From assembly GCA_020631605.1 (NCBI GenBank), contig JAHDGZ010000006.1:1-44125 (forward strand): a stretch of DNA of 44,125 nucleotides. The letters are read 5' to 3'. A program made the translations under genes and the position numbers. This document shows positions 1 through 44,125 of the stretch, in pieces. Position 1 is the stretch's first letter. Every line of letters starts with the position of its first letter. The stretch is from a bacterium. GTDB lineage: Bacteria > Patescibacteriota > Gracilibacteria > Absconditabacterales > Absconditicoccaceae. The notes beneath the pieces were generated by a model. The model made no database searches. It saw nothing but the letters and a program-made list of their open reading frames with translations, and had not been told where the DNA came from.

Positions 1-911
1 GTGGTCAAATTGATAAATCATGCTGCATGACGTAGTATCTCTGCTTTCTCTTGATCATCATCTATCCATCAGAGAAAAGTGATCGTCGGCCCGGCAATAT
101 CCTTAAGATACGCCTCATCTGGTCATGAACCCATGATCAAGAGCGGCACGTGAAGTGTATTGAAGAGTTCAATAATACGGTCATACTCTTTAACCAGACG
201 AACTAATCTCCCACTTGCTACTCGATAGGCACGAGGCGTAGCTACTGCAACATCGAAAAACACTTCACTGATACTAGGATATGCTATTACCGAGTCGAGT
301 CAGTAGATATGCGTGGCTTGCTCTGATGTATAAGCACTGTTGGTGTAGACAGTGTTATAGAGTCTCTTTTTTGTGTCTCGATGACGTAGAGGCCTTGATA
401 TACTTTTGAACAAGAAGAGCTTTATTCATGTGAGTTTGTTGATGTATTCATGATAGTGTGAGTGTATATACTGCATAGGTGAGTGAAGATAGAGTATGGT
501 ATCTCAGAGTGCAGTATCTTGTCACGGTTGGACAATATTCTTTGCTATAGCAAAAGATGAAATGATGGTTTTTTGAGGTTTGAGTTGAGTGGCTTTTCTT
601 CTCATCAAACGGACAAGAAGTGGGTAGAAAAACATGAGGTTTCTATAATCAAAGAGCCAACTCAAAAGAGGAAAACGGTGTTTTTGAAAGTAGGAAAACA
701 CAGCAGAGATCCAGTGAGGTAGCGCAGAGATGACAGGATATATCTTATTGTTATGCTCAATAGAGTCTACGGCGCTGATAAGCGTTATGATGTATTTTAC
801 GTCAGAAAAATCTGTCAACAATTCCTTCACAACATTGAATGCTCAGCCGCTCATCAGCCGACAATGCACCAAGAGAGAGTTTGTTTTTGAAGAGGAATTT
901 ACACTTGACAT
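1..911 (-). CDS. GT4-type glycosyltransferase, 3' end beyond window
   Basis: Table-25 reading: MSSVNSSSKTNSLLVHCRLMSGGAFNVVKELL...GRLVRLVKEYDRIIELFNTLHVPLLIMGSGPDEAYLKDIAGPTITFLGWIDDDQEKAEILRHAAGFIN; the GSGPD...L..IAGPTITFLG pattern is typical of GT4 C-terminal domains. Includes ORF 522..830(-). Confidence 0.8.
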
Positions 912-967
912 TATTTATGTAATATGTACAAAAATTGGATATATTTTTACTCGTTAGTAGTGTTTTG

Positions 968-2491
968 ATGCAAGCAATCGCAAAACGAATTTGTGCAGTA
1001 CTTTTTATTTTAGGTATGGGAATAGGTCTATCGGTCACTGAAGCCGGTTATACCAATTATAGCTATCCATACAACGCAAACTATTCTAGCTTTCCAGTAG
1101 TTAATTCCAATCCGTATTCTTTTAATAGGGCAGTGTCATCTGATTGTTTGATGCAATGATATTGTGGTAACACAGTCTACATGAATAGAGGATGATACGG
1201 AAACTATTATGACCAGACAAATAGCTACCCAAGACAACACCAATGATTGACGGACAATACGATCAACAATAGCTACAACACTACCAATAATATTGAAATT
1301 GATTATAAGGTAGACAATAGACACTACTATGACTACAAGTACAACTATAATTACAATATCAGCAACTCATACAATCAAACCACAACACAACAAGCACCCA
1401 TAGTAAGACCTCAGCCAATAGTTAAACCTCAAACAGTAGTTACTAAACCAGTCTATCAGATACCACAGCACGTGACACCAACGCCTACATACCAATGTAA
1501 GTCAGGTGAGTCTATGGTATGGTGAAAAAACCAATGTCTTTCAGGACAGTGATCAGTATGCTATCAGCGTCCAGATGGAAAACGATGTACAAAAAAAGGA
1601 ACTGTCGCACCTCCAACTTTCAATTGCCCTTCTACGTACCAGCCAGTATGTGGAGCAAATAGTGCAACGTATTCTAATAGTTGTGTAGCTCAACAAGCAT
1701 GAGTAGCAATTACATGTCAGTGAACATGTCCATGTAACAAACCTACACCAACACCACCTACCTATCAATGTAAGTCAGGTGAATCAATGGTGTGGTGAAA
1801 GAATCAATGCCAGCAGTGATATTGATCAGTATGTTACCAACGTCCAGATGGAAAACGATGTACAAAAAAATGACATACACCACCACCAGAAAACTGTGAA
1901 GAACAACCAGAAGAGGTGTGTACTACACAAGTGAAGTCTAAAAGAGGAGACAAGTATATGTCTACTCTCGGATTGACTATCCCTACATCATTAAGTCATA
2001 TCAAACAATACCGTATCCAATGGTTCAATGGAACGCGAAGTCAGTGGTATACACCAGGAAACAATGATATAGATCGAAAAACTAATTGTGAATGAAATAG
2101 TACACAAACAAACAATTGTGCAAGAAGAGTATGGTCATATTTCGATGATCATACATACGAAGTCAAAACTTGTACTATCAAGTATCCAACAACAAATAAA
2201 TGTACACAGACAACCAACTATTATCATCAACCACAACAACAAAACAACTATGGTTGATACACATCTTCTGCATACACCAACTCATATAGAAACTCAATAA
2301 CACCAACAAACAACGCATATGCTATTCAGAGACATTATGGTCCTACAGCAAGTCCATCAAGTAACGCAGCCTCAGCTTCTCACAATAGCCCATCATGATC
2401 TTCAAATTATGGATGGAATACTGATGCTCACTATACTGCAAACCCAAGAACATATGGATTTGTAGAAGATATCAACAATACCTTTAGATAG
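968..2491 (+). CDS. Secreted Cys-rich protein with Kazal-type inhibitor-like domain and duplicated Cys module
   Basis: N-terminal signal-like MQAIAKRICAVLFILGMGIGLSVTEA; low-complexity Tyr/Asn region; CPSTYQPVCGANSATYSNSCVAQQAGVAITCQGTCPC matches the Kazal pattern; frame 2 open across TGA to TAG at 2489-2491. Confidence 0.75.
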
Positions 2492-2500
2492 GAGAGTCAT

Positions 2501-3052
2501 ATGGCAAAGGCAAACAAACCAATGAGTTATCGATCAACTCAATCATATCACAGCAATGATGTATATACATCTATAGCAACAACACTGCGTGATAAGATAG
2601 ATGATACTGCAAACAAAATTGAGGATAAGTATGGTAGGCATAAAAATATCCAAATTATGCTTGGTTTTTTGGACAACCCTCATGGTCGTATGCAATGTGA
2701 GTATGTCAATAGAGACAAAAAGAAACTATCTAAGGAATTACTTGCGGCAGTCAACGATATTCAGTATCATATACAGGTCGAGTTTCATTTGAGACAGGCC
2801 CTGAAAAAGCAAGAAAGAAAACAGGCACATTTTTTCATAGGTCAGTTGGAGACAATAAGTCCCAACTTGTTGCACATAATTTTGACCAAAATTCATGAAA
2901 ATGAACGACCTAAAGAAGATCTTGAGTTACTGTTTGGAAAAGTACATCCTAATGACCGAATAGATGACTGGAGCGTCATTATTCAAGTCGCCTGATACTT
3001 GAGTAGGAGAAGTGCATTGTTTATCGAAGAAGATATTGATTGAGAGGATTAG
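2501..3052 (+). CDS. Hypothetical protein
   Basis: ORF 2501..2995 extends through TGA to TAG at 3050-3052; starts 9 nt after the preceding gene. Confidence 0.7.
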
Positions 3053-3100
3053 AATCGATACAAGTATACACACAAAATTTAACTAATAGGCATATGGTGA

Positions 3101-4444: not shown

Positions 4445-5881
4445 TTAGCTAAGTGATGTAGTAAGTTTTTCTAAGATAATTGTATGGGGCACTTGTCCTT
4501 TGGTGTCTCTCATTACCTGTCACATCAAAAATTTGATAGCAGTATCTTTCCCACCTTGATAGTCTGAAACGGCGTCAGGGTTTTTTTGTATGACAGAAGA
4601 AATAATTTCCATAAGTTGTTCCTCAGAGAGTCATGCTTCGTCAAATTTATGTGCAGACACAATAGAGTCAGGATCATCTCCTGTTGCTAACATTTCTTTC
4701 ATAACAATTTTAGCCTGACTATTGGTAATAGCATGAGATTGTATCAGACGCAAAAAGCGTATCATTTTCTCTTGATCAAAAGGAAGTGCATCTATCTCTA
4801 CAAAGTGCTCTTTGCAGTAAGCGGCGATTGGTCCAGCAAGCCATTTCACAATAGATTTGGGTTCAAAATCATGAAGAAGCATAGCATGAAAATAACGGTG
4901 CATGACAGGACTACCTATGAGTACGTTGATATATTCTTTGTGGAAACCAAATGTCTCAACATAAAGCTGAATAAAATCAGCAGGGATGACCAACTCACTA
5001 GTATTCATTGCGTCCAAGATAGTCTCATCCAAAAGCAAAGGAGGCAGATCTGGTTCAGGAAAATAACGATAATCGAGTGCATCTTCTTTGCTTCTCATGA
5101 GTATAGTGGTTCATGATTCAGCATCCCAACGTCTTGTTTGTTGAGTCACAGTATCTCATTGTTGTAAGATCTCTAGTTGTCTGGCATATTCTACGTGAAT
5201 AGCGGCTTTAATATTAGAAAAGGTATTAATATTTTTTATTTCTACTCTTGTTCAATATTCTTTTTGTCCAGTGGGTCTGATAGAGAGATTGACATCGACT
5301 CTCATTTGTCATTTCTCCAAATCTGCATCTCCAATATTGTTGAATCTTGCAATTCTTTGAATTTCTTTCAGGAAGTTAGTTACTTCATCAGCACTACGAA
5401 AATCAGGTTTCGTTACTATCTCAACAAGAGGAGTACACGCACGATTGAAATCTATAAAAGAGTCATCACCATCATGAATAGTTTTGGCAGTGTCAGTTTC
5501 AATTTGTAGGGCATGAATACCTACATTAGTGCTATTACTATAACTTTCATTATAAAAACTTACTGTTCACTCTTTTCCATATGGTTTGTAGAACTGAGTA
5601 ATCTGATAACCCAAAGGGAGATCAGGGTAAAAGTATGATTTTCTATCAAAAAGACTGGGGTTGTTGAAGCTACATTTTAGTGCTCTTCACAGGAGTAGTG
5701 ATTTTTCCACAGCTCATCTTTGTAAAACAGGCAAAGATCAAGGTTGTCAGGTACAGACAGGGCAAATGTTGCTATTGGGCTGCGTTTTGATGAAATCCTG
5801 TAAATTGCGACATGCACAAAAAAGTTTCTTCTCACTATTTATTTTGAGATGTATTTCGAGACCTATAACAAGTTCAAACAT
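4445..5881 (-). CDS. gatB: Aspartyl/glutamyl-tRNA amidotransferase subunit B
   Basis: [24 protein letters not shown]...NICPVCTGQPGSLPVL...[21 protein letters not shown]; GatB signatures, with several Gly encoded by TGA. Confidence 0.97.
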
Positions 5882-6092
5882 TAATCGAATAGATAGAACA
5901 AAAACAGTACCCAAAAAGTGCTTATTTAGAGGAAATTTGCAAGTCTTTCAATGAATTATCCACAGATAAAACGCAATTACATCATATTTAAAACAAAAAG
6001 AGTACAAAAGACTTTTTTGATAAGTGTTTTTTTGCTATTACCGCAGTGGTAGAGTATCATAAGTATATGATTTAGACATATCCTACAACAAG

Positions 6093-8636
6093 ATGCCAAA
6101 AGATCCATTTTTTCAGACTGAAGATCTACAACAAAAATCTCAAACAGCATGAGCAGAAAAAGTAGTAAGCCAGACTCCACAGGAAAAAGTAGTGCCAATT
6201 ACCACAGTTAGTGCTGAGGTGCAAAAATCAACTGAAACAATAGTCAAAAATGTTCAGAATGTAGAAAAGAAGATTATTCCGGAGAGTCAATCATCACCTG
6301 TCATCGAACAAAAAGAAACTTCAATATCCGAAATAGAAGCAACCACAGAAAACAATCCAGAGGAGATCTTAGAGCAAAAACTTAACCAAGTGGAACAAAA
6401 GACACCTCCTATCAAAAAGGTTAATGCACCTCAGAATTCAAATAGACAAAGATCAGGTAGCCGTCTATCATTTAGGTGAGTAATGATTGGTTGTTTGTTA
6501 TTTCTCTTACTGATCGTATGAGGTTTGAGTTTTGTCTTCTACTCAATGTTGGCAGATCCAAGTCAACAACGAACTATTATCCCACGTCAGGCAGCGCAAG
6601 ATCTACTTATCACATTTGCATGGGTATTCTTTGTAGTTATTTTCTTCGTGGGAGTATTCTTCTTCACAGTAAACATCACAAGATTGTTAAGCAAAAAGCG
6701 TAGCAAAAAACTTGTATACTCATTTGGTGCATTCATTTGATTTCTCCTGATGTTGTTGGCAGTGTGATTGGGTATTCCAACAGTAACATCTATATCTCAA
6801 GCTGGGGAAAGCAAGATAGATCGTATCGTTGACCCATATGTATTATTACCAGACGGTGCGACATACGCCGCAAGCGAACCAAGAGTCTTACTTATTGCAC
6901 CTACCAAGATATTCTATCAGCTAAATTCAGATATATACAAATCGAGAGTATTGTTGCCACTAGGTTCACCAGATGTGACATGACTTACTCTGAGTTGTTG
7001 AAACGGACAAGAGATTGGCTATGACTCAGAAACAAATGGATTTGGTTCATGTCTCTATACAGAGAAAAAAATATATCCCGTAACATTGAATCTACAATAT
7101 GTGGATAGACAAACAGGAGAAATCAAACAAGATACAAGAAAATTGGCAGATCTCAGTATGGATGCAAAGATAGATTTTGATATCGTTGATGGTGAATTAA
7201 CTACCAATGATAAGGCGGATGAGGTTCTCCTAGGAGAAGCTCCTGTTAAACTCCGTCTAGATGCTCAGGATATAGTGACAGCTTTCGGTTTGACAAGCAA
7301 TGAGATCAATTGGGATATAGATGGAGATGGAGAATATGAATCATTACAAACAGCAATTATCAAACAACAATTTCTCCGTTCTCAACTTTATACTATCAGA
7401 TATCAGATACCATGACTTTCACCATATGTGTATTCTATCCAAGCGAGAGTCTTGCAGCCAGAAACACCGGTATGTCAGGTAAATATTATACAACAATCAG
7501 ATAGTGTCTATCGTTTTGATGTAAAATTCGTCGAATGAAGCGAAAAGATTAGTCAGTATGCATTTGCTATCAAAGATCTTGCAAATGGTAGTGTGATAGA
7601 TCAGAAAAAAGTAAGATGAAATTCTTTGCAATATGATTTTCTTCAATGAGGAGATTATGCGGTCAAAGCTGCATTTATCACTCAGGATGGTAAGACCTCA
7701 TCTTGTGAGAGTGATGACTTCATGGTAGGAGATGTAGCATACGAAGTAGACTATGATTTGACTATTAAATCACCAACTGACCAAAAGTTTCTTGCTATCA
7801 ATGAGAGTAGAGTAACAGTCTCTGAAGAATGAATTAGTGTCAAAGAGTTACCTACAACATTACGCTTTACTGATATTGAAGTATTTCCTAGAACAACTGA
7901 AACCAGCACAACAATGTTGCTAGATGGTCAAGCTGTTTTAGCAAATGCAGATGGAGGATATGATGTGATTATTGCTACGCAATGAGAACATATGATACAA
8001 ATACAGTCAACTAATCAAGAGAGTGGACAATCAACTATAGTAGAAACTATTGCTGTAGACACAGACTTACAATGAGTGATAGGTAAATTGTTAGTAAGAC
8101 CTGATACGGTAGGAACAGAGCCTTTTGAAGTTGAGTTTGATGCTTCTACAACAAAGATCAATGATCCAGATGATGAAGTTGTCTACTTCACATGGGATTT
8201 TTGAGATGGAGAAGTAAAACAAAATATTAATCAGGCTATCATTAAGCATACCTATTATTTTGATGAAGATAGTGCTGATGGAAGATACAACCCTCAACTG
8301 ACTATCACAACAAAGAAATGACGTGAGTTAGTAGTTGATTTGGATAATCCAATTATAGTGAAAAGATCATTGAGAGACGCTCGTATTTCTATTGATTCTC
8401 ATCCAGGTCAGATTGCCAAAACAGGTGAATTTGTTAAATTTTCACTAACCGCTGATGGTGTACCAAGTCGTGTTACATGGACATTTGGTCCTGATGATAC
8501 ACTAGAGTGTGCTGCAAGAGAATGTACTGAAGCAAGTCGTACCTTTACTGAGGCATGAGAGTACACCATTCAAATCAAAGTAGAGTATGAAGATCATCCA
8601 GATGTCTTAGATGAAGTGGAGCTTATCATACAATAA
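6093..8636 (+). CDS. Membrane-anchored PKD-domain protein
   Basis: Frame 0 open from MPKDPFFQTEDLQQK to TAA; hydrophobic segments (GVMIGCLLFLLLIVGGLSFVFYSM; LLITFAWVFFVVIFFVGVFFF; a third near 6720-6790); PKD core YFTWDFGDGEV near 8190-8220 with TGA as the first Gly. Confidence 0.85.
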
Positions 8637-8637
8637 G

Positions 8638-9351
8638 TTACTTCTGACTAGCATAGAATCAGATGACATCGTTGACATCATATCTTGGATCTTGTCTATT
8701 CTTATATCGCCACTGATGTGGTTGATGAACATGCATATGAGAGAGTTTTTTCCAATCTTTGAATATCCCCGATGAGGTGCACAGTAGAGTAGTTGCTTCT
8801 CAAGATTTTATCTTCCAGTAACAGCTACTACGTTGTTTTTCGGTACGTTTTCAGCTATCAAGTCAGACTCGATTTTTTCCAATCCATTTCCTCCCGTAGA
8901 AATAAAGAGCCCACAGATTGGGAAAGACTATTATAGATTGCTCTCATGTGGTACTATTTTTCTCAATAAGACAATTGTTTTCTGTATCCCAAGTGAGAAG
9001 AGTAGTCGAGGATTTTTTATTTTTCTTTTTCAGTACGTTTTTTCTTTTGAGAAGTTGATCTATATCACTACCAAGCCAAAGAGGAATAATATTCTTGTAT
9101 GAGCTAAAGTATTCTTTGACAAGTAGATGCACCATCTTCATCGCTGCTTGTGAGATAAGCTGCTTCTCTGCTAGATGATAATCTACTGTTCATTCAAGTT
9201 TGTATTCACATCACCAAGCGACAGTCTTTCATAGTACAAGAAAATATTGACCTTGTAGAAGTATACAGTCTCAAGGCTTGGCATTAATTTTTTGTGGATA
9301 GAGAACAACTCTATCATTGCCATAATAGTTGCCAAAGTGGAAGAGATACAC
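8638..9351 (-). CDS. Truncated/degenerate PriA-like protein (start uncertain)
   Basis: GEQSIIVFPNLWALYFYGRKWIGKNRVGLDSGKRTEKQRSSCYWKIKSGEATTLLCTSSGIFKDWKKLSHMHVHQPHQWRYKNRQDPRYDVNDVIGFYA aligns by eye to PriA VLVPEIALT...W..I..GEA..VIGTRSALF.PF..L..I.VDEEH..SYKQ...PRY.ARDVA. In-frame upstream stop TAG at 9385-9387; GTG at 9351 is the proposed start. Confidence 0.6.
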
Positions 9352-9516
9352 GGAATCATATGCGTTATAAATACAGTGAGAGTACTATTTTTCTTTGCAA
9401 AATCCACCGATATCCCTATACTTATAGATGTATCAAAACAAGGTATTCCTTGCGATGATCGACACACACATGAGACAATTGTATCTCTTTTGTCTACTAA
9501 CCTTATTACAGTAATG

Positions 9517-12500
9517 TGAATTTTTTCGGCAGCAGAAAAACTTGCTCACTCATTGGCTAAACCCCAAGGAAAAAAGCAAACTGATATTTCTGTCTGATCA
9601 AAAGATATAATATTCCAGTTGTTGCCCTTTAGAGATAATGAACTATGAGTAAGTCATTGGCATGCCTTACTACAAAATTTTGTGAAAGTAAAAAAAGAAA
9701 TACATTTTTATACTGTATGAGATGTTTCAAACATTAAGTTTTTTGCAGTAGTACCTTCATCTTTGTCAGACTACTTTAGAAATCAGTTTTTTGCTGCATA
9801 TCCGACATCAGATTTAGTGCAATACAGCAAGGGATTAAAACTTCCTTCAGCACGAACATATGTGCATATTGAACCTAAGACTGAGATTGCAACCAAGGAA
9901 TACTTTGTGCAAGATGGCTCATATATTGATCCAATGAAAGATATTATGACCATCTATGGTTCAATTCCAAAATGATGACAGCTGGTGCTCAGCTACAGTT
10001 ATATGTTTAGTAAGTCCACCTCATTCCGAGAAAAGGTATGGAAAAATACTAAGAAGGTAGCAAATCTTCTGCGAAATGGAGCAAAAAAGAAAGAAGAAGA
10101 ATGAGATAAGAAAGATGATGCAGACAAAGTCATGCAATATGAGCAAAACACCAATGAGGTCTTGTTGGCTCTATGATGCGGATTTCAGTGAGTAGATGCG
10201 GTGACGGAGTCGACAACACTAGACGCACTAACAAAAACATACGGAGCATTGTTACAAAAAGGAAAGCTCAAGATAAAAGAGAAAAAAAGACATATTCCAA
10301 TGAGTCGTAGCCAGGCAGTCAATTTTTTTCATGTGCCAACCAAAATAAATTTTGTACAATGATTGGAATATGCAGTCTTCCGTAAGCTGCCATTCCCAAG
10401 TAATCTTCCAACGCCCGAGAATACCTCTGAAAAGGAACTAGCAGTATTGGGTAAGACAGATTACAAAAGTGAATTGCACAAGTTTGGGATCAAGGATGAA
10501 GACAAGTTTAGGCATGTTTATGTAGTGGGTAAAACTGGTACAGGTAAATCAACGTTTCTATCTAATATGATCAAATCTGATATGATCGCAGGAAAGTGAT
10601 TGTGTCTGATTGATCCTCATGGTGATTTGGTAGATACAGTCATGGAGCACGTACCAAGCTATCGTGTAAACGATGTAGTACTTTTTGATGTGGGAGACCA
10701 AGAATTTCCTATAGGATTCAATCTCTTGCAACACAAGACAGAAGAGGAGAAGTTACGTGTGGTCTCTGGAGTAGTTTGAGTGTTTCATAAGATGTTTGGA
10801 CATAGTCGATGACCGAGACTAGAATATATTTTGAGAAATATTCTTCTTACCTTGGTAGATTATCCAAATGCTACTATCTTACATCTCTTGCGTATACTCA
10901 CCGACAAAAACTTTAGAGAGGATGTGTTGGTGCACTTGAAGGACCAGGTAGTGATGTGATTCTGGCGTAATGAATTTGATAAACGACAAGATAGACAGGT
11001 ACAAGATGCGATTGGTCCTATTACTAACAAAGTATGACAGTTTCTCTCATCATCTATTGTAAGAAATATATTTGGTCAGCCGAACTCCAAGCTGAACATG
11101 AGAGAGGCGATGGATAGCTGAAAGATAATTCTAGTAAATCTCTCCAAAGGTCGTATTGGTGAAGATAATGCCAAGATGATTTGATCACTCTTGGTGACCA
11201 AGGTAGAGATTGATGCTATGTCGAGAGCGGATATACCGGAGCGCGATAGAAAGGACTTTATGCTCTATATTGATGAGTTTCAAAACTTTGCAACTGAATC
11301 ATTTGCGACAATTCTCTCCGAGGCACGTAAGTATCGTCTCTCATTAATAGTAGCTAATCAGTATACGTCACAACTTGATGAGGTAGTACGTGATGCTATT
11401 TTTGGAAATGTGGGTACCGTGATATCCTTTACGCTAGGTCGTGATGACGCTGAAGTCATGTCCAAGCAATTCAAAGAAATGATATCACCAAATGATCTTT
11501 TATCATTGCCTAAGTTCAACGCGTATGTGAAGCTTATGATCGATGGAGTCATGTCCAATCCATTTAATATGTGGACATTGCCATTATCATCTCCAGAACA
11601 ATCAGAAGAAACAAAAGATAAGATAAGACGTCAATCTCATCAACGTTATGCAATGGAAAAATGAAGGCTAGAATCTCTTTTGGATGCACGGGCCAAGAAA
11701 AATTTCTCCAAACAAGAGGCAATTGCACAAAAAGCTAAGTTAGAGTGATTAGGTCTCGGTGCGGAGGAGATAGAGACTCTTACTGATATCAGGATAGAAA
11801 AACGTTTACTATTGTTCACTGATTATGCTATTGCATGAAATGAGCCAGATATGATGCTGATAGATGTAGAGCAGTGAGATCACAAAGCGATCTGGTATCG
11901 CAAGCCTAGATGATTTGAAGATCATACCAAGCTAGACATGAAGAGAATCAAAGGAAAGGACTATGAAAAAGATGGCAAGAAAATATATGAAGTAAAAGTG
12001 TGAATGTACGAACACAAGACTATTCAGAGTGAGGATGGAGACTGGTTGGATATCCGGATTGGAACAAAGAAAGAAGTAGTAGAGCAGTTGGATCACTGAT
12101 TCCAAAAAAAGGATAAACGAAAACTAGTGTCAAATATTAACAAGTTGCAAAATCCACAACCTATGAGTTATTCCCCAAGACAAGAGGAGGCAAAGGCAGA
12201 TAAATCATTAGAGAAATACAAAGAATATTTCACAGCATACAAGCTTGGTAATGAAGAGCCAGATGAATTAATCGTTGATACAGAGAAGTGAGCACATAGA
12301 GCTGTATTTTACTCAAAACCTGAATGAATAGAGCAGGAGGCGACACTTGATCCAAAGAAGACTAAATGAGCAGAATTTGCGATCCAGTGACATACTTTGC
12401 GTATCACAGTTGATAAGTATCACCACAAAACACTACAAAATGAGGCTAATAAGCCTTTAGAGATACGGGTTGGAACAGCTGAAGAAGTTGAAGAGCAACT

Positions 12501-12897
12501 GATTTACTGATTTTGAAATACTACCAAATATAGACCATTGCCTAATACAGAGAAACCAGCAGTTAAGAAAGTTACAAAAGCACAAAAAGGTGGGACTAAT
12601 GCGAAGAAAGTAACACCAGCCAGTGCACCGATAGATACAGGATGATGAGGTACATTTACCATCGCAGATATCAAAAAGTGAGAGCGATATGAGGGATATG
12701 TTAAGTTACTATACAATTATGGTATTTTTGTAACAGTAAAATGAGTTGAATGACTACTACACAAAAATTTCATTGTAGAAGTAGAGTGAGTGAAATTCAA
12801 AGACTACTATAATATTGGTGATAAAATTCGTGTCAAAGCCGACGGTTTCAAAGATGTGAAAGGTGAGCAAAAAGTAATCTGGAGTCAAAAGAAGTAG
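9517..12897 (+). CDS. TraC/VirD4/VirB4-like ATPase with duplicated C-terminal domain and S1-like domain (frame is open from 9292)
   Basis: Walker A VYVVGKTGTGKSTFL; GLCLIDPHGDLVDTV; FMLYIDEFQNFATESF; LIVANQYTSQLD. C-terminal GERYEGYVKLLYNYGIFVTVKGVEGLLHKNFI...YYNIGDKIRVKADGF resembles S1. Joins ORFs 9763, 10363 and 11191. Confidence 0.85.
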
Positions 12898-14844: not shown

Positions 14845-15100
14845 GAGTAGGGTAGTAGAAGAATAAATGTTTTGTGATGATTCCAGTGTACGAACGAATA
14901 GAAAAAAAACTACTTTTCAGACTTTTTTGTCACCAAAATAATCAGAAAAAAAGAGAAGATCAAAAAATATAGTGACAAAAAAAATATACGACGTAGAGTC
15001 GAAAACCTAAAGTTATCAGCAAGAAAGATGTCTAGGGGTGATAATTTGCACAATAGCAGCACGTAGTGTATAATCAGGTATCTTTACTTGGTATCTACTT

Positions 15101-15859
15101 ATGTCAAAGCTGTGATGGATCACCTATGTATTATGAATAGGAGTATATGGAGTCGTGTCTTGGTGAATTGCTAGTGACATGTTTTATCATGCAAAAACAT
15201 ATGAGAATACAATAGTACAAGAAGTAGAAATAGACGGGCAAGTTGTTGAAGTTGCTGAAGAAGAGTATACAGATAGAGTAATAGAAGAAAAGAGTGTGAG
15301 TCCTACACCCACATTAAGTTTTTCAACACAAACAGTTGAGTGAGTATGAGAAGAAGACAAAGAACTAACCTTGTGTCAGAAGCAAGGTGATATGTCAGAG
15401 TCAGAGTGTGAGACGCTACTTGCATTCTATGAACAAATGAATGGAGACGTGTGGAAAAATAATGATTGACGAAAAAAGACAGAGAGTGTGTGTAGTTGGT
15501 ATGGAGTTTGATGTCAGTGATGAAGTGTAGTGACACTTCAGTTAGCAAACAACAATATAGTCTGATGGTTGTCTCCAGAAATTGGTAAGCTATCAAGTCT
15601 CATATCATTAGATCTATCTGGTAACAACAAACTAACCTGACCACTTAAAGTGGTAGAGGAGTTGGAATTTCTCAAAAGAGTAAACGTAGTTGATGCAAGC
15701 CTGTGTTGAAGATTAGGTGATGGTATGATTGAAAAGTTAGAATCAAACAAAGCGTTCAATCTCTACGCAAGATGAAACAATCTTTTGTTAGATAAACTTA
15801 GTGAACAGGTTGCCTATACTATAGGAGAACAGAAGAATCCAAGAATCTGTGCACGTTAA
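15101..15859 (+). CDS. Membrane-anchored short leucine-rich-repeat protein
   Basis: N-terminal hydrophobic anchor MSKLGWITYVLGIGVYGVVSWGIA; LLAFYEQMNGDVWKNNDGRKKTESVCSWYGVGCQGGSVVTLQLANNNIVGWLSPEIGKLSSLISLDLSGNNKLTGPL resembles an LRRNT cap followed by LRRs. Confidence 0.8.
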
Positions 15860-19565: not shown

Positions 19566-20573
19566 ATGACAAAAGAAAAACTCTTACAGGAATTACACGC
19601 AATTACTGAAAAACAAGAACTTGATAACTACTTTCAAGAGTACCTCTGAAAGTGAGGAAAAATAACAACAGAGTTTAAGAATCTAAAATCTTTGACTCCA
19701 GAAGAGAAAAAGCAAAAAGGTGCAGAACTCAAAGAGATGAAAAATGAGGTGGAAGATGCGTATCAAAAGAAACTAAGAAGTATTGAGATTGCTTTAACAA
19801 ACGAACAGTTGATAAGAGAAGATCCCATTGATATATCACTGGATGCTCCTCAATGATATGACGCACATGTTAATTTGTTGGCGAAAGAAAGAAGACACGT
19901 CGAAGATGTAGCAAAATGATTATGAATGACGGTTGAGTATGGCCATGACATAGTCAGTAAATATGAAAATTTCTATTCAGTGAATATCCCAGCAGATCAT
20001 CCTGCAACTGAAATGCATGATACAATATACTTGAAACAAAAAAATGAAAAAGGAGAAAATTTTGTATTAAGGACACATACAACTGCTCATGATGTCCAGT
20101 ATATTAAGAAGTACGGAACACCTCTTTCACTATTAACACTCGGGAAAGTATATAGATATGAAAAGCTGGACGCATCACATGATACAGCATTCTGGCAAAT
20201 TGATTGACTAGTGATAGACAAGGGTATGTGAATAGCACATTTTAAGTCGTTTATGACACAGTTCCTTTCTGCACTTTTTGAAGAAGAGAAGCATATTAGA
20301 TTGAGACCGGCATACTTCCCATTTGTTGAGCCAGGATTCGAAATAGATGTGAATTATAACATTGGTTCAAAAGAGTGAGATGATAATCGACTAGAGCTTT
20401 TAGGTGCCTGAATGATTCATCCACACGTCTTACGCGAAGGAGGTCTGGATCCAGAGGTATATAGTGGTTTTGCCTTTGGGATAGGTCTAACAAGACTAGT
20501 TGCAATCAAGCATGGTCTCAAAGATGTTCGTTTGCTGACAAACGGAGACCTTAGATTTGTAAAGTCCTTCTAA
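19566..20573 (+). CDS. pheS: Phenylalanine-tRNA ligase alpha subunit
   Basis: [13 protein letters not shown]...[13 protein letters not shown]...[28 protein letters not shown]...[16 protein letters not shown]...LLGAGMIHPHVL...[18 protein letters not shown]; class II aaRS motifs. Confidence 0.95.
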
Positions 20574-26343: not shown

Positions 26344-26502
26344 TAGTTTCTCGTTAAACTAAACATAGCTAATTATAGTGATTTAAAACAAAAAAGTCAA
26401 AATCTAGGGTCAACAAATATCAGGAAATATCCCAAAATGTCTTGCATTCAATAATTTGATGGATACAGCTAGTCTATAAGTATTTTATACGGTGCTAACA
26501 TA

Positions 26503-28119
26503 ATGGTAAAGAACGTTGCAAAATTGTTTGTTGAGTGTTTGGAGGCTCATAATGTGGAGTATGTGTTTGGTGTGCCAGGAGAAGAAAATCTTGATTTGTT
26601 GGACGCTTTGAGAGAGTCATCGATCAAGATTGTTGTTACTCGTCATGAGCAGACAGCAGTCTTTATGGCTGCAACACATGGAAGATTGACAGGAAAAGTA
26701 GGAGTAGCGATGGCTACCTTATGACCTTGAGCAACTAACATGATGACAGGAGTTGCTTATGCCCAGTTGGGCTGAATGCCGGTGATGGTAATTTCCTGAC
26801 AAAAGCCAATCAAAAAATCAAAGCAATGACGTTTTCAGATACTTGATGTGGTGAGTATGATGAAACCTGTCACCAAGTTTGCGACAACCATAGTCAATGC
26901 AGCAAAAGTTTCTAGTACGATAGCTGATGCGATCATGACAGCAGAGGCAGAGAAGCCATGAGCAGTACATATAGAATTGCCTGAAGATATAGCTAGAGAA
27001 GATGCAAGTGGTCTAGTTCCTATTGTCTTTGATAAGATCAGAAGACCAATAGCAGATGAGAAGGCAATCAACGAGATAGTCTCCTATCTAGAAAAAGCTC
27101 ACAGACCCATGATATTGGTATGAGCATGAGCGAATAGGAAGAGAGTAACTAAGTATTTGACAAAATTTATCCAAAAACACAATATCCCATTTTTCACGTC
27201 TCAAATGGGAAAGTGAGTAGTAGATGAACGTCTTCCACAGTATATAGGAACTGCTGCTCTGACATCGAATGACTATATTCATGATGTGATAGACCAGGCT
27301 GATTTGTTGATAGCAGTAGGGCATGATACTATTGAAAAACCAACTAATGTAGTCCACGATGGTAAGACTAAAGTGGTGCATATTAATTTCACTCCTGCTC
27401 AAGTAGATGAGTTGTATAAACCAAATTTGCAGGTTCCATGAGATATAGGAAACACGTTGTGGAGATTGTATGAATCAGAGATAGATACATCATGATGGGG
27501 TTTCGATAGTATTTATGAGACAGCACTCAAGGCTCGTTCAATGATGGAAGCGAATACTGACACCATATGCTGTACACAGGGAGTGACACCAGCGCGATTC
27601 ATCAGAGAATTACGTAAAAACATAGAAGATGATGCAATAGTCGCTCTTGATAACTGATTGTATAAAGTACGATTTGCACGTAACTTCCCAACCTATTCTC
27701 CTAATACATTGTTGTTGGATAATGCTTTAGCTACTATGTGAGCATGATACAGTTCAGCCATGATGGCAAAAATATTACACGAAAATCAACAAGTGATTGC
27801 AGTAGTATGAGATTGAGGTCTGTTGATGAATTTAGGTGATTTAGAAACGATTGTGAGGCTATGATTAGATATGACAATCATTGTACTCAATGATAGCGCA
27901 TATGGGATGATCAAGTGGAAGCAAAGTGCTATGTGATTAGCATCATTTGGTTTAGATTTAACAAATCCAGATTTTGTATGACTTGCAGAAAGTTTTGGTG
28001 CCAAGTGATATAGTCTAGACGCATGAAATAATTTTCATGAGGTTATGCAAAGTGCATTTGCGCAGACATGACTAAAAATCATAGAAGTAAAAATTATGTA
28101 TCCTGAGAAAGTTGCTTAA
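26503..28119 (+). CDS. ThDP-dependent enzyme, acetolactate synthase large-subunit-like
   Basis: VEYVFGVPGEENLDLLDAL...VTRHEQTAVFMAATHGRLTGKVGVAMATLGPGATNMMTGVAYAQLGGMPVMVISGQKPIKKSKQGRFQILDVV...VIAVVGDGGLLMNLGDLETIVRLGLDMTIIVLNDSAYGMIKWKQ; ThDP GDG-X(n)-N motif. Confidence 0.92.
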
Positions 28120-28156
28120 TACGAAAAAAAAACATTTAGATGATAGTAGTAATCAG

Positions 28157-29521
28157 ATGTCCACACAGTTGTCTCGTAATCCATTCACTGGAGAAATCAA
28201 TATTGAAGTAGAAAAAATGTCCAATGATCAAGTAGATCAAAAGATAGCCATCGCCCAACAAGCATATATTAGCTGGAAGGATACATCTTTAGAACACAGG
28301 TCGTCTCTCTTTCATAAATTGGCAGACATTATGGATAGAGATCGTGATAAAATTTGTTTGCTTGCAACCAAAGAGATGGGAATGTTACAACATATCTCCC
28401 AAGGGATACTAACATCATGTGCCAATCTCATGAGATGGTATGCAGACAATGTAGAAGAAGTACTTGGAGATAAGGATTTTTCACATGATGGAATGACAGG
28501 GAAGTATGTCTATGATCCGCTCTGAGTGATATACTGAATTGGTCCATGGAATTTCCCTTATAATCAAGTACTAAGAGCTGCAGCTGCAAATATTATTGCA
28601 TGAAATACTACTGTCTATAAGCATTCTTCAAATGTTCCTTTGTGTGCTGCTATGATAGAAAAATTATTTGCAGAAGCATGATTTCCAGAGTGAGTGTATA
28701 CGAATGTGTATATATCTGGTAGTCAGTCAGAACATATTATCTCTAATAATGCTATTCAGGGAGTCAATATTACAGCTAGTGAACAAGCTTGAAGTATTGT
28801 TTGATGACTTGCAGGTAAGTACCTCAAACCATCAGTGCTTGAGTTATGATGAAATGATGCATTTGTATTGTTAGATCATAAAGATACTTCAGCCATGGTT
28901 GCCAAAGCCGTCGCATGTCGTATAACAATGGGAGGTCAAAGGTGTAATTCAAGCAAGAGGTTTATTATTTTAGATAAGCATTATGAAGATTTTGTAGAAC
29001 AAATGTGATTGCATATGGCTGCACTTAAAATAGGAGACCCTATGGATCCTAATTCTGATTTGCCTCCAATAGCAACAACCAAATTGCTTCATGAAATTCA
29101 TCATCAAGTAGAACAGACAATTGCTCAGTGAGCTAGATTGATAACATGATGAAAAATTGTTGGTTCAAAAGAGCAATTTTATGCAGCAACAGTACTCGCT
29201 GACGTAACGCCTGAGATGACTAGTTATCGTGAAGAGGTGTTTGGTCCAGTAGCAAGCATTGTAAGGTCTAGTTCTATTGAAGAGTCTATCAGATTGGCAA
29301 ACAATAGTGATTTTGGGCTTTCTGCAGTAGTGTACGGAGATGACATCGATCAGTGTAAGGATGTGGCGAGACAGTTGGAATGATGAATGATATTTATCAA
29401 TCAACAACCAGCGTCAAAATCTTCTTTGCCATTTGGTTGAGTCAAAAAGACCTGATATGGAAAAGAAAATTGACCAGATGGACTCAGGTCTTTCACCAAC
29501 AAAAAGGTCATTCTCTACTAG
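28157..29521 (+). CDS. Aldehyde dehydrogenase, succinate-semialdehyde dehydrogenase-like
   Basis: SRNPFTGEINIEVEKMS...GVIYGIGPWNFPYNQVLR...LELGGNDAFVLLDHKD...MGGQRCNSSKRFIILD...EEVFGPVASI; catalytic Cys in GGQRCNSSKR. Frame also open from TTG 28112. Confidence 0.93.
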
Positions 29522-31625: not shown

Positions 31626-31649
31626 TTTTATGATCTATTCTATAACAAG

Positions 31650-32162
31650 ATGACAGATATTACAGCAACAATCAAAACGGACAAAGGAGAGATTAAGTTA
31701 GAATTGCATAGTGACAAGGCGCCTATGACAGTAGCAAATTTTGTAAACCTAGCATTGAGAGGTTTTTACAATGACCTAAACTTCCATCGTGTGATAGATA
31801 ATTTTATGATTCAATGATGATGTCCTCAAGGAACATGAACATGATGACCTGGGTATCAGTTTGCTGACGAATTTCATCCAGAGCTGCTACATGATACTCC
31901 ATGAGTATTGTCTATGGCAAACTCATGACCGCATAGCAATGGATCACAGTTTTTTATTACACATGCAGAGACGCCTCGACTCAATGGTGCTCATACAGTA
32001 TTTGGAAGAGTGGTGTCAGAAGATGACCAATGAATAGTCAATGCCGTGTCTCAATGAGATGCGATTGAAAAAATTGAGATTGAAGGTGATGTAGACTGAC
32101 TATTCAAAAAAGTAGAAGACTTTATGAGTATGGTCAATAAGGCCTTAGAGAAGGACGAATAA
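31650..32162 (+). CDS. Cyclophilin-type peptidyl-prolyl cis-trans isomerase
   Basis: [31 protein letters not shown]...[38 protein letters not shown]; five glycines in the core motif are TGA. Confidence 0.97.
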
Positions 32163-32164
32163 GT

Positions 32165-32779
32165 TTAGATTTTTTCAAAAATATAGATAACTCTTTGTAT
32201 GTCATCATCAAATAGCTTGTAGTAGTGCATCTCTTCTAGAAACAGTTTTTTTCATTCTGCAAGATCCAAAAGAAGTGGTTCTTCTTCACTTGAGAGTATC
32301 TTATAAAGTATAAGTTTTCCTCCCTTTTTGACCAAAGGTGCACATCGAGGAATGATTTTGTCTGCAAATCAAACTGCTCTGGCAGTGACATAATCAAACC
32401 TTTGAGACATGTTTTCAACTCTTGATCGTAATGTTTTCACATTCGTAATACCTACTTCATCGGCTATAAACTGAACTGCATGTGTTTTTTTTCTTCTCGC
32501 GTCTACTCAGAGAAATGTACAAGAAGGGTTGAGCATGGCAAGCGGTAGCAGTGGGAATCATCATCAAGTCCCAATGTCTACGATGGTTGATCCAGGTTCA
32601 AATTCTATTTTTTTGTGCACCTCTATGCTGTCCAAAATATGTTTTTGATAAACTGACTCTTTGTCTCTGATTGCGCTAAGATTAAGTTTTTTGTTCCGCT
32701 CAAGGAAAGTAGAAATGAGTGCATCTCGTTGTGTGTCCATAGATAGAAAAGCTGATAGGTCTAAATGTGTTACTCTCAT
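32165..32779 (-). CDS. rsmG: 16S rRNA (guanine527-N7)-methyltransferase
   Basis: FLERNKKLNLSAIRDKESVYQKHILDSIEV...STIVDIGTGGGFPLLPLAMLNPSCTFLGVDARRKKTHAVQFIADEVGITNV; RsmG signatures. Confidence 0.93.
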
Positions 32780-33436: not shown

Positions 33437-34099
33437 ATGAGAAAAAAATCAATAAGACATAAAGAAATCGCTTTAGATGATCGTTTGTTAGAACCATGAA
33501 AAGATCTCTATACAAAGATCAAAGGGAACCGAAGTAGGGATTTTTTTGCTAACAACAATCCAATTACCCTTGAGATAGCTTGCTGAAAGTGAGAATATTG
33601 TGTGTGAATGTCAGCTATCTATCCAGAGCGTAACTTTGTATGAATAGACAAGAAGTGAGAAAGAATGTGGTACGGTTTACAAAAGATAAAAGAGAAAGGA
33701 GGTGCTAATGTAGGATTTTTGCGTGCAATTGTTCAAAACTTATCTGATTTTTTTGATGAGTGAGAGGTAGAAGAAATATGGATCGTACATCCAGATCCAA
33801 GACCTAAAGGTGTTGATACAAGAAGAAGGCTAACATATAAGCGCTTTTTACAGATATACAAAACACTACTCAAGCCCTGAGGTATGTTAAAACTAAAAAC
33901 AGACGATACAGACCTTTTTGAACGAAGTCAGCAATCATTAGCTCAAGATTGATGGGAATTACAAAGAATGACGAAAGATCTGTATCAATCTGACCTATTA
34001 GGTGAACATCATTGAATAGAGACTTTTTATGAAAAGACATTTGTTGCAGCATGAAGAACAATCAAATACGGTGTCTGGTCTAGGCCTGATGATGAATAA
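33437..34099 (+). CDS. trmB: tRNA (guanine-N7)-methyltransferase
   Basis: PITLEIACGKGEYCVGMSAIYPERNFVGIDKKGERMW...EEIWIVHPDPRPKGVDTRRRLTYKRFLQIYKTLLKPGGMLKLKTDDTDLF; TrmB signatures. Confidence 0.93.
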
Positions 34100-35098: not shown

Positions 35099-35115
35099 TC
35101 AATATCTAGACTAAG

Positions 35116-35496: not shown

Positions 35497-35605
35497 TCTG
35501 CATCAATAAATGATAAAAAGATCATACAAATGATCTTGCACAATGTAAAACAAAAGTAACTTGTTACAACGATATTGTTATGAAAAAAATAGGAACATAA
35601 TCTTC

Positions 35606-36670: not shown

Positions 36671-37136
36671 GCTGACTATCTTGTGAGTAAATCGCATAGA
36701 TGCTTGTTATCATCATGGACAAAAACGCTACCATTCAAAAGAATGCCATACTCATAAATCCGAAATACTCTACATCCATACTGCTGCAAGGAGTTGTAGC
36801 TCTTCGATCACACAGGACACTTCACCATCATCGATATTGAATTCAATACTTGTAGAGAGCTAGTCAGAAACCTATTGCTGCTAGTATCAGAATAGTATGA
36901 AAAACTTTGTTGTCATTTTTCCAAAGAGCTATTCATGAGATGACCGGTAAGGGAAACATTACAACTCTAATATATCGGCACATATCACATGCAGCAATAC
37001 CATTCAAAGTATTGAAGAAATCTCAGCTCATAAGATTTACCACTGGATCGCCATAGGTACTAAGATACAGTGAGCCCAAGACTCATAAAAGAGAAACAAA
37101 AAAGACAAAAAGAAGTATGTTGCGATTACCTTGCAT
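36648..37136 (-). CDS. DsbB/BdbC-like disulfide bond formation membrane protein
   Basis: NGIAACDMCRYIRVVMFPLPVISGIAL...SVLCDRRATTPCSSMDVEYFGFMSMAFFGMVAFLSMM; paired Cys and TM segments. Confidence 0.82.
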
Positions 37137-37195
37137 TGCTAGTATGAGACAATAAATACATATAACTTAGTATTTCTTTGAACAACTTCAAGAGC

Positions 37196-37558: not shown

Positions 37559-37632
37559 CACGAATTAAGAAAGTTGACAAGAGAAGAAATTAAGGTATAG
37601 TTATGTTGTTTACTATACAAAGTATTCTTGTT

Positions 37633-39572: not shown

Positions 39573-39700
39573 ATGAATCAATGAAGTATAAAAAATATAC
39601 TAAGATAGTAATGGTGATATATTCTAAAGCAAGAAAAATGGTGATGTAAATAACATGAAAACCTATACAACGAGTACTATCAGAGTGTATGATAAAAGAC

Positions 39701-40336
39701 TTATATGAGATTGGAAATGAATGTGGTTCTATGTAGTGGAGTAGGTCACAAAGACTTAATAGCTTCTCTGTGTTGCTGCGTACCATAGCCTTTATGTTGT
39801 GCAAATCAGTAGTCAGGAAATAGTGTATCTTGAGACGTCATCCATCTATCACGTTCTACTTTGGCAACGATAGAAGCCATGCTGATGAATGGATTTTTTT
39901 GATCTCATTTGATTATGGTAGTGGTGTTTCGCCATGTATCTAGACCAAAGGTATGGTTACCATCAATAGTGAGCTGTAGAGTATCGTTGGGTAGTGAGAG
40001 TAATTTTTTGAGATAACATCATCTATGTGTAGGGATTTGTAGGTCAGGATGCTCTTTTGCTATTGTGAAAAGGGCTCTAATGATTGATCGTCTGAGCGAC
40101 CGGATGATGCCATTGCGGTCTATTTCTTTGTTTGAAGCGAATCAAGAAGCAAAGAGTATTTTTCCAGATTGTGCTAATGTTTGCATATGATCATAGCAGA
40201 TATTTCTTTTATTCTCAGTCAGTTGTTTACTGTCACGAAAAAGTTTTTTTGAAAATCTAGAAAGTGGGAGAACAGCACCTACTCGGACTGGTCATGCTAA
40301 CGGTCAACGTCACGCTTCATCGACATAAATTTCCAT
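39701..40336 (-). CDS. rnhB: Ribonuclease HII
   Basis: MEIYVDEAGRGPLAGPVRVGAVL...FRDSKQLTENKR...FISMASIVAKVERDRGM...[26 protein letters not shown]; the DEAGRGPLAGPV glycines are TGA. Confidence 0.97.
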
Positions 40337-40398
40337 ACATATATAGTAGATCTAGGTTGCGGGGGCCTGCAAAGTAATAACTCACAGGTCGGTGTGTA

Positions 40399-40572
40399 CT
40401 AGAGTATTGATATACAGAGATACACACCTAAGCAGATAAGAATGGGAAACAGGATCGTAATTCCCATTGAGCCAAACAATATACTGCCGTATACGGCAGC
40501 AATGAGTAACAATGAGAGTGCTTCAGTATTGTCGCACCAGTCTTTCTGCAGTTGTTGCATGAACTTTTTCAT
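40399..40572 (-). CDS. Small membrane protein, 57 aa
   Basis: MKKFMQQLQKDWCDNTEALSLLLIAAVYGSILFGSMGITILFPILICLGVYLCISIL*; no internal TGA, two hydrophobic runs. Confidence 0.5.
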   Translation of the reverse strand: MKKFMQQLQKDWCDNTEALSLLLIAAVYGSILFGSMGITILFPILICLGVYLCISIL

Positions 40573-40751
40573 AAATCGATTTTAATGGTTATGGAAGAAA
40601 AAGTTCATAGTTTTTGATTATGCTAACTTTCTTATATTCACTATCACAGAGAAGTCAAGAATTAGTAAAAAAAAGAAAAACTGCAGTGATTGTAAAAAAA
40701 TAAAACACTCTATGTGGAGAATGTCAACATATCTACATCTATACAACATAG

Positions 40752-40770
40752 CACCTATTGCAATTAGGTG
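40752..40770. repeat. Short inverted repeat upstream of secA
   Basis: CACCTA-TTGCAAT-TAGGTG followed by ATATTTTTAT; 63 nt before the secA ATG. Confidence 0.4.
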
Positions 40771-40833
40771 ATATTTTTATAGAATAGTTACTCATTGAAA
40801 AGTAAATTTTAGAGATAATCAATAACGAGAAAA

Positions 40834-43800
40834 ATGTTCAATCGTATACTAAGTGCTATTGCATGAAACCAAAACCAAAAAGAACTAAATAAGCTAGATA
40901 GTCTTGTCTGAGACATCAATAGAATCTACGAAACTATGCATGACTTATCAGATGATGAAGTGAGAGCAAAAACAGAGGAGTTCAAAAAGAGAGTAATCGC
41001 TTGAGAGACACTGGATGATCTCTTGCCAGAAGCTTTTGCTGTAGTCAAGCAAGCCTGCAAAAGAATGGTCTGAAATAGTTATGACGTAAAAGGAGAAAAA
41101 CAAACATGGAACATGATACCATATGATGTACAGCTCTTGTGAGCAGCAGTGCTTCACAAGTGAAAGATAGCAGAAATGAAAACGGGTGAAGGTAAAACAC
41201 TCGTGGCAGCTATGCCAGTATACCTCAATGCCCTAGCAGGTAAGTGAGTACATGTAGTAACAGTAAATGATTACTTGGCATCACGTGATGGAGAATGGAT
41301 GTGAAATCTCTACCAACGATTGGGATTGAGTATAGGGATAGTAACCAAGGGAGTACCTCCACAATCAAGGCGTGAACAGTACGCATGTGATATTACCTAT
41401 GTAGAAAATTCTGAGTTATGATTTGATTACCTTCGTGACAATCTAGTCAAGAATCTTCGTGAAAGAAACCTTCTCCGAAGACCATTAAACTACGCAATAG
41501 TGGATGAAATAGATTCGATATTGATTGATGAAGCAAGAACGCCATTGATTATATCTCAAGCAGCAGATGAACCAACAGAGAAATATCTTCATTATGCAAA
41601 GATAGCATGATCATTGATTGCTGCAAAATGACCTAAGAAAGTCAGTAAAGGATTTCTGCATGATATTATGAATGATGCTAAAGATACTAAGGATGGAGTT
41701 ACATCACAAGAAGAGGATGATCAACACGGAGATTATTTCATAGATGAAAAAACCAAAACAGCAACACTAAGCTCTGAATGAATAGCAAAGTTAGAAAAAA
41801 TGCTCAATGTAGAAAATCTATATAAGGATTTAGGATATGATGAGATTCACCATATAGAAAATGCTCTTAAGGCAAAAGCAGTATATCGCCCTGACAAAGA
41901 ATATATCGTACAGTGAGGCGAGATCTTAATCGTCGATGCCAATACTGGTCGTGCAATGCCAGGTCGTCGTTTCAGCCAATGACTCCATCAGGCGATTGAA
42001 GCAAAAGAATGAGTTACCATCAGAAGAGAATCTAAAACGATGGCAACTATTACCTACCAAAATTTTTTTAAACAATACAAGAAGTTGTCAGGTATGACAG
42101 GTACTGCGGTCACAGAAGGAGAGGAATTCTCATCTATCTATGATTTAGATGTGTTGGAAATTCCAACAAACAAACCGGTAATTCGTGTTGATAAGTCAGA
42201 CAAAGTATACTTTTCTCAGAAAGCTAAGCGAGATCATACGATGGATTATATCCAGTTTGCTCATAGTATGTGACAACCAATTCTTATTGGTACATCTGCT
42301 ATACACACATCTGAATCCTTGTCGCAACAACTAACTCAAAGATCAATTCAACATAGTGTACTCAATGCTAAGTTTCATGAACAAGAAGCTAAGATTGTCA
42401 GTAATGCAGGTAAAAAATCTTCGGTAGTAGTAGCAACAAATATGGCATGACGTGGTACGGATATTAAGTTAGATGAAGATCTTAATGCAACCCTAGCGAT
42501 CAATTATGCACAGTGGATAAAAAAATCGATACATAATGAAAAGAATCCAAAGATAGTGTCAGCAACAGTATATTCACAAGTAGAATATGATTGGCTGATT
42601 GCTACCCTCAAGGACACCTTGGAGCTTAATGATGAAAATATTGCTCAGTCTCAAAAGAAACGATTCGATAAAGAGGAGCAACAGTTAGCAATAAGAATCA
42701 AGATGAACTCTTCGAAGAAGAATGCAGAAGATGCGTATGCAGAGATTATTGTTCGTGATCCAACAAAACCAGACTTGGAAACGATAGAGAGAGATCTGCA
42801 TTTTGGTTTGATGATATTGGCTACTGAGAAACATGATTCTCGTCGTATAGATAATCAATTGCGTGGTCGTGCAGGTAGACAAGGTGACCCATGAATCTCA
42901 GTATTTATGGTTGCTCTTGATGATGATATTATGAAAAAAGTTGGTGGAGAGAAGATTAGAAGCCTTGCATGAATGTTGATGGGAGCAGATGAATTGAATC
43001 AAATGGAGCTAACACAGAAACAATTTGCGACAGCAATACAAAGAGCTCAGAAACAAATGGAATGACGGCATTTTTCTACAAGAAAACATCTTTTCGATTA
43101 TGATAGTGTAGTAGATAAGCAAAGACAGCAAGTCTATGCAAAAAGAGATATGATGCTGCATGCATTAGATGAGGTTGAGCGTATTCATGGAGAACAAAAA
43201 GATTCAGATATTATTAGTACAGGAGAATCACCAGTCGCCGGAGAGGTGTTATCAATTATCCCGAAAGTAGTAGATGAACTCATGACATATCACCAAGCAG
43301 TCAGAACACCACCTACTGAATTAGTAGAGATACTCAAAAAAGAGTGTAATATAGATTTGTCAAACGATGAATTGAAGGAAATTCAATCCTCAAATCAACT
43401 AGCTAGTTTAGTAACTCAGCACATAGTCGATCATGTATCAGTACGTAGCAGCAATGTTCCTGACCATGTACAAAATCGTCTTCTCTCAACTATCTATCTA
43501 CAAGTGATTGATAGATATCGAGTACAGCATCTTTCTGCTATGCAATACCTGAGAGATAAGGTTGGACTTATGTCTTATGCACAACAAGATCCTCTTGTAG
43601 TATACAAGAAGGAGTGATACGAAAAATTTACCGCATTGATGAAGTCAATCTATCGTGAAACAGTGATCAATGTAGCGAATATTGATTGGGAGAATCTCGA
43701 GAAGAGAGTGAAGCAAGCAGAAGAACAGCGTCAGAAACAACAAGACGCACTTCTTCAAAAACTAAGTAATGTTGCAGCCAATGCTCCTGAAAAACTAGTG

Positions 43801-44079
43801 AAACAAGTAGAGCAATTGTTGTCATGACAGAATCAAACAGAGAATCTAAAGAGAGAATGAAACAAGGTTGTCTACCAAGATGAAGATTGATTTGAAATAA
43901 TAGATTTAAGCGAACAGTGACCTGCGGCAAATCAGGTAGAGAATACGAAGACTAATGCAAAGTTAAGACCCAATGATAAGGTAAATGTGAGATACCCAGA
44001 CGGAAGAATTGAGTATGATCTGAAATACAAGAAGGTAAAAGATGCAATTGATAAAGGTGAAGTAGAGTTGCTCTCATAG
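40834..44079 (+). CDS. secA: Preprotein translocase ATPase SecA
   Basis: [35 protein letters not shown]...[56 protein letters not shown]...[16 protein letters not shown]...[15 protein letters not shown]...[22 protein letters not shown] at 44077-44079. Confidence 0.98.
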
Positions 44080-44125
44080 TGTTGACAAAAGACATTAATA
44101 GTATATAAGTTTTTGTTTATGATAT

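What the first reader, a model, noticed from the sequence alone, without database searches (positions are those of the whole stretch)
1..44125. Whole window uses UGA as a glycine sense codon (table 25)
At invariant glycine sites the DNA has in-frame TGA: cyclophilin MIQGGCPQGTGTGGPGYQF is ATT CAA TGA TGA TGT CCT CAA GGA ACA TGA ACA TGA TGA CCT GGG; RNase HII DEAGRGPLAGPV uses TGA for three of its Gly; PKD WDFGDG is TGG GAT TTT TGA GAT GGA; GatB CTGQPG uses TGA for both Gly. Every gene I reconstructed ends in TAA or TAG, none in TGA. TGG still encodes Trp. UGA=Gly is established for Absconditabacteria (SR1) and Gracilibacteria, so this sets both lineage and annotation rules: the supplied ORF track systematically splits real genes.
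Basis: partly seen in the sequence, partly recalled or inferred. Interest (0 to 1): 0.7.

Follow-up and report, generated by a model that had tools for sequence, protein, structure and literature searches.

The report
UGA=Gly confirmed; CGA/CGG mean Trp
[quoted passage not shown] both changes had already been predicted for this lineage.

Summary
In-frame TGA sits at glycine positions: 30 of 34 conserved columns in the window and 467 of 545 over 625 kb of the same genome. The genome has a tRNA(UCA) with glycine identity and RF1. RF2 is absent here and in all 24 family relatives searched.

The interpretation 'table 25' is incomplete. CGA is not arginine here. In 39 conserved columns CGA falls on Trp 20 times and on Arg once; Trp beats Arg by about 146 log units. 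CGA means Arg in three standard-code control genomes under the same test. In the window CGA replaces conserved Trp in SecA, PheS and a TraG/HerA-like ATPase, and CGG replaces the usual Trp in RsmG. The tRNAs for CGA and CGG (anticodons UCG, CCG) carry tryptophan identity elements. In ValRS of 15 family relatives, CGA/CGG fall on conserved Trp 55 times and on Arg never. A UGA=Gly genome from another family of the class keeps CGA=Arg, so UGA=Gly alone does not identify the lineage.

Shulgina & Eddy (2021) predicted this triple code for Absconditabacteria, so it is known. What this genome adds is heavy CGA use (48 per 10,000 codons, TGG 62), above their range. Correct annotation needs table 25 plus CGA=W, CGG=W.

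The parts
1..44125 (.). Whole window, a complete contig (C17) of the host genome, read with TGA=Gly, CGA=Trp, CGG=Trp; TAA/TAG stops
4445..6034 (-). gatB; CTgQPg with both Gly as TGA
6063..8636 (+). PKD-domain membrane protein; WDFgDG with TGA for Gly
10807..10809 (+). CGA where three standard-code relatives have Trp (FGHS-CGA-GPRLEYILRN, TraG/HerA-like ATPase, frame 9259-12897)
15470..15472 (+). CGA in the LRR N-terminal domain (NGDVWKNNDG-CGA); Pfam LRRNT_2 passes its cut-off only if CGA=W
20388..20390 (+). CGA at the PheS tryptophan (DDN-CGA-LELLG; Trp in two phylum relatives and in the three PDB PheS alignments shown)
31626..32162 (+). cyclophilin-type PPIase; 10 TGA, including MIQggCPQGTgTggPGYQF
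32696..32698 (-). CGG in RsmG/GidB (FLE-CGG-NKKLNL); Trp in B. subtilis and E. coli RsmG, not in T. thermophilus. Reading W at this CGG and at the gene's three CGA raises the Pfam GidB score from 115.9 to 122.9 bits
33530..33532 (+). CGA in TrmB at GN-CGA-SRDFF; aligned with or next to Trp of B. subtilis TrmB (KGKWN)
33923..33925 (+). CGA in TrmB at LFE-CGA-S; Tyr in Streptococcus/Bacillus TrmB
36975..36977 (-). CGA in DsbB-like protein (CDMC-CGA-Y). Weak: Trp here is remembered from the related BdbC motif, and the Pfam score does not improve
39701..40351 (-). RNase HII; DEAgRgPLAgPV with three Gly as TGA
42229..42231 (+). CGA in SecA where 25 of 28 relatives have Phe/Tyr; named close relatives have TGG or CGA here
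43519..43521 (+). CGA at the conserved Trp of SecA (DxxWxxH[LI]); 25 of 28 relatives and the E. coli SecA in the PDB have Trp; close relatives have TGG or CGA
40819..44079 (+). secA; 25 TGA, 15 of 15 conserved TGA columns are Gly

Best explanation
The window is chromosomal DNA of an Absconditabacteria-type member of the Patescibacteria with a triple-altered genetic code. UGA is glycine: RF2 is lost, RF1 handles UAA/UAG, and a tRNA-Gly with anticodon UCA reads UGA. CGA, and very probably CGG, are tryptophan: two further tRNAs (anticodons UCG and CCG) bear Trp identity elements, are inferred to be charged by the single TrpRS, and read the two former Arg codons. Arg keeps AGA, AGG, CGU and CGC. 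Shown here: codon-to-residue correspondence, tRNA genes and identity elements, absence of RF2, one trpS. Inferred: charging by GlyRS and TrpRS, and unambiguous decoding in the cell.
For: UGA=Gly. CGA=Trp: Trp 20, Arg 1 of 39 conserved columns, versus CGT Arg 137 of 168; Trp over Arg by 145.8 log units and over Tyr by 57.2. The same test on three standard-code genomes gives CGA=Arg 34, 14 and 99 times, with Trp not among the leading residues. ValRS of 15 family relatives: CGA on conserved Trp 48, on Arg 0; CGG on Trp 7, on Arg 0. Within-clade exchange: SecA columns where the query has CGA are TGG in close named relatives, including one column that is Gln in standard-code relatives. tRNA(UCG) is G1:U72, G73, no A20; tRNA(CCG) is A1:U72, G73, no A20; tRNA-Trp(CCA) is A1:U72, G73; tRNA-Arg(GCG) has A20. 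tRNA-Arg(UCG) of standard-code relatives has A20 and A73. One trpS. CGG at the RsmG Trp.
Against: CGG is rare (40 in 86,366 codons), and no CGG column in this genome passed the strict two-reference test, so its meaning here rests on RsmG, the tRNAs and the relatives. One CGA (ValRS) lies at a column that is Arg in all three references, so low-level ambiguity or a real R-to-W substitution is possible. The DsbB Pfam score falls slightly with CGA=W (44.6 to 43.4 bits). Absence of RF2 is from an 87% complete assembly, though family-wide absence supports it. No proteomics.
Confidence: 0.95

Rival explanations
1. Plain NCBI table 25: UGA=Gly and every other codon standard, so CGA/CGG=Arg.
For: UGA=Gly part. 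Recent papers on the lineage still annotate with code 25 alone (PMC13059738). One ValRS CGA falls on an Arg column.
Against: CGA on Trp 20 times versus Arg once, with clean Arg controls; 48 versus 0 in relatives' ValRS; tRNA(UCG) lacks Arg identity.
Confidence: 0.02
2. UGA=Gly and CGA=Trp, but CGG still Arg or unassigned in this genome, split by tRNA(CCG).
For: CGG is rare, and a few single-reference alignments put it on Arg.
Against: tRNA(CCG) has G73, A1:U72 and no A20; tRNA(UCG) with U34 would read CGG as well; CGG at the RsmG Trp; 7 versus 0 for Trp in family ValRS.
Confidence: 0.04
3. Mycoplasma-type code (UGA=Trp), or readthrough/selenocysteine at UGA; ARAGORN labels the UCA tRNA 'SeC'.
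For: Only the automatic ARAGORN label.
Against: TGA columns are Gly in 467 of 545 and Trp is not among the listed residues; over 2,300 TGA in homologous frames is far too many for Sec; the tRNA has Gly acceptor identity.
Confidence: 0.005

Closest known systems
Absconditabacteria triple code (UGA=Gly, CGA=Trp, CGG=Trp), predicted by Shulgina & Eddy 2021, eLife (PMC8629427); restated for Absconditabacterales in PMC13092985
   Same: All three reassignments, GCG/UCG/CCG tRNA set, Trp identity of tRNA UCG/CCG, AGA as main Arg codon, low GC (36%)
   Different: CGA is commoner here (48 per 10,000 in ORFs with homologs) than the published ceiling of <37 per 10,000 in Pfam-aligned positions; counting methods differ
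NCBI translation table 25 (SR1 and Gracilibacteria)
   Same: UGA=Gly, UGG=Trp, UAA/UAG stops
   Different: Table 25 keeps CGA and CGG as Arg; here CGA is Trp and CGG very probably Trp
Gracilibacteria-like UGA=Gly genomes of the same class (G148)
   Same: UGA=Gly
   Different: G148 ValRS: CGA on Arg 3, on Trp 0
CGG=Trp codes of Anaerococcus and a Bacilli clade (PMC8629427)
   Same: CGG to Trp via a Trp-like tRNA(CCG)
   Different: There CGA stays Arg and UGA stays stop; tRNA(UCG) is missing

Membership tests
NCBI table 25 | UGA = Gly | tested here: met
   467 of 545 conserved TGA columns Gly; tRNA-Gly(UCA)
NCBI table 25 | All other codons standard, including CGA and CGG = Arg | tested here: not met
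   CGA: Trp 20, Arg 1 of 39 columns
Absconditabacteria triple code | UGA = Gly, RF2 lost, tRNA-Gly(UCA) | tested here: met
Absconditabacteria triple code | CGA = Trp | tested here: met
   controls
Absconditabacteria triple code | CGG = Trp | tested here: inconclusive
   In this genome one strong site (RsmG) and a Trp-like tRNA(CCG); family relatives 7 Trp, 0 Arg
Absconditabacteria triple code | tRNA(UCG) and tRNA(CCG) with G73, no A20, R1:U72 | tested here: met
   Arg-type tRNA(UCG) in standard-code relatives
Absconditabacteria triple code | In vivo Trp incorporation at CGA/CGG | not testable with these tools
   needs proteomics or tRNA charging assays
Gracilibacteria-type code with CGA = Arg | CGA = Arg | tested here: not met
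Order Absconditabacterales (taxonomy) | Phylogenetic placement in the named order | tested here: inconclusive
Mycoplasma code (table 4) | UGA = Trp | tested here: not met
   Trp not among residues at TGA columns

The most novel reading that the evidence does not exclude
Within this one family the takeover of CGA by tryptophan runs from a relic to a majority codon. In ValRS, CGA:TGG at conserved Trp columns goes from about 2:17 (G119, G120) through 9:10 (this genome) to 11:9 (G132) and 4:2 (G127). Some members would then have finished reassigning a sense codon, beyond the early-stage usage described in 2021, giving a graded natural series for how a sense codon is captured.
Probability: 0.5. Interest if true: 0.45.

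Novelty: already known. Interest (0 to 1): 0.3.

Why it matters
Anyone annotating this genome with table 25 will still print Arg at roughly 0.5% of all codons where the protein has Trp; a 2026 paper on this lineage still uses code 25 alone. The CGA reading separates Absconditabacteria-type from Gracilibacteria-type genomes where UGA=Gly cannot, and the heavy use of CGA makes the family a good place to study late-stage capture of a sense codon.

Tried and rejected
The 'SeC' label of the UCA tRNA was rejected because the acceptor stem and U73 are of Gly type and TGA columns are Gly. RsmG is found in few phylum genomes, so PDB homologs were used instead. DsbB was considered as a Trp site but Pfam does not support it. 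Strict CGG columns in this genome: none.

Full report
OBSERVATION. The four quoted glycine sites are in the sequence as described. Under table 11 the window yields only 27 stop-free stretches of at least 100 aa; reading TGA through gives contiguous genes up to 1212 codons. TGA is the commonest codon of the glycine set in these frames (449, against 202 GGT and 193 GGA). Against standard-code relatives of the phylum, TGA lands on Gly in 15 of 15 conserved SecA columns, 30 of 34 columns over the window and 467 of 545 over 625 kb of the genome. That is nearly the rate of GGA (403 of 452) and GGT (335 of 375). The likelihood of Gly exceeds the next amino acid by more than 1100 log units.

MACHINERY FOR UGA. 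The window has no tRNA gene. Elsewhere the genome has a tRNA(UCA), which ARAGORN labels SeC, with G1:C72, C2:G71, G3:C70 and U73, the glycine identity set named in PMC8629427. The prfA gene carries a PxT-type motif (PET). The other release-factor-like hits are short, ArfB-like proteins. No genome of 25 in the family passes the prfB cut-off, while ten named control genomes do.

THE CODE IS NOT JUST TABLE 25. Listing the CGA and CGG codons of the window showed them at places remembered as tryptophan: SecA DRY-CGA-VQHL, RsmG FLE-CGG-NKKLNL, TrmB LFE-CGA-S, PheS DDN-CGA-LELLG. This was tested three ways. First, columns where at least two of three standard-code genomes agree: CGA falls on Trp 20, Tyr 4, Phe 3 and Arg 1 of 39, while CGT, CGC, AGA and AGG fall on Arg; Trp beats Arg by 145.8 and Tyr by 57.2 log units. 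The same procedure applied to the three reference genomes returns CGA=Arg in each. Second, ValRS from relatives: in 15 family genomes CGA falls on conserved Trp 48 times and CGG 7 times, and neither ever on conserved Arg, whereas standard-code members of the class show Arg. Third, SecA of named close relatives exchanges CGA with TGG at the same columns, including a column that is Gln in standard-code relatives. PDB homologs agree for PheS and SecA, and for RsmG in B. subtilis and E. coli but not T. thermophilus.

tRNA SUPPORT. The tRNA(UCG) is G1:U72, G73, without A20; tRNA(CCG) is A1:U72, G73, without A20; both resemble tRNA-Trp(CCA) (A1:U72, G73) and not tRNA-Arg(GCG), which has A20. In standard-code relatives tRNA(UCG) has A20 and A73, as expected for Arg. 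One trpS was found, so a single TrpRS is inferred to charge all three.

LIMITS. CGG is rare (40 in 86,366 codons) and no CGG column in this genome met the strict test. One CGA is at an Arg column of ValRS. Pfam scores mostly rise with CGA/CGG=W (GidB 115.9 to 122.9 bits, LRRNT_2 appears) but DsbB falls by about one bit. The assembly is 86.8% complete. Charging and decoding in the cell are inferred.

COMPARISON. UGA=Gly in Absconditabacteria and Gracilibacteria is established, and CGA/CGG=Trp in Absconditabacteria was predicted in 2021 (PMC8629427) and restated in 2026 (PMC13092985). This genome fits that code, and a UGA=Gly genome of another family of the class keeps CGA=Arg. The one quantitative difference is the higher CGA usage, 48 per 10,000 against under 37 in the 2021 survey, with the caveat that the counts were made differently. 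Some relatives use CGA more often than TGG in ValRS.

VERDICT. Observation confirmed; interpretation right about UGA but incomplete; code already known for the lineage. Table 25 plus CGA=W and CGG=W is the correct reading of this window.

Noticed in passing
window 15074-15859 +: Small leucine-rich-repeat protein with an N-terminal LRRNT_2 cap, recognised by Pfam only when CGA is read as Trp.
   Followed up: partly
window 923-2491 +: Secreted-looking protein with a Kazal-type protease-inhibitor domain (Pfam Kazal_1, E 1.5e-5) and a repeated Cys-rich CKSGESMVWGKNQC motif.
   Followed up: partly
window 9259-12897 +: TraG/HerA-like ATPase fused to a C-terminal S1 RNA-binding domain, with a repeated segment (DIxIGTKKEVVEQL / EIxVGTAEEVEEQL, x = CGG).
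   Followed up: partly
window 26473-29521 +: A thiamine-pyrophosphate enzyme (pyruvate oxidase/acetolactate synthase type) next to an aldehyde dehydrogenase, unusual baggage for a small reduced genome.
   Followed up: no
host genome G000 (tRNA set): Only UCC and UCA glycine tRNAs were found; tRNA-Gly(GCC) and tRNA-His are missing, possibly because the assembly is incomplete.
   Followed up: no
ValRS loci L212-L231: Family members fall into two groups, about 44-49% and about 30% identical to this genome's ValRS, suggesting two ValRS lineages within one family.
   Followed up: no
L091:80-3145 -: One ValRS CGA lies at a column that is Arg in all three reference genomes (KYY-CGA-RFLNKLWN).
   Followed up: no
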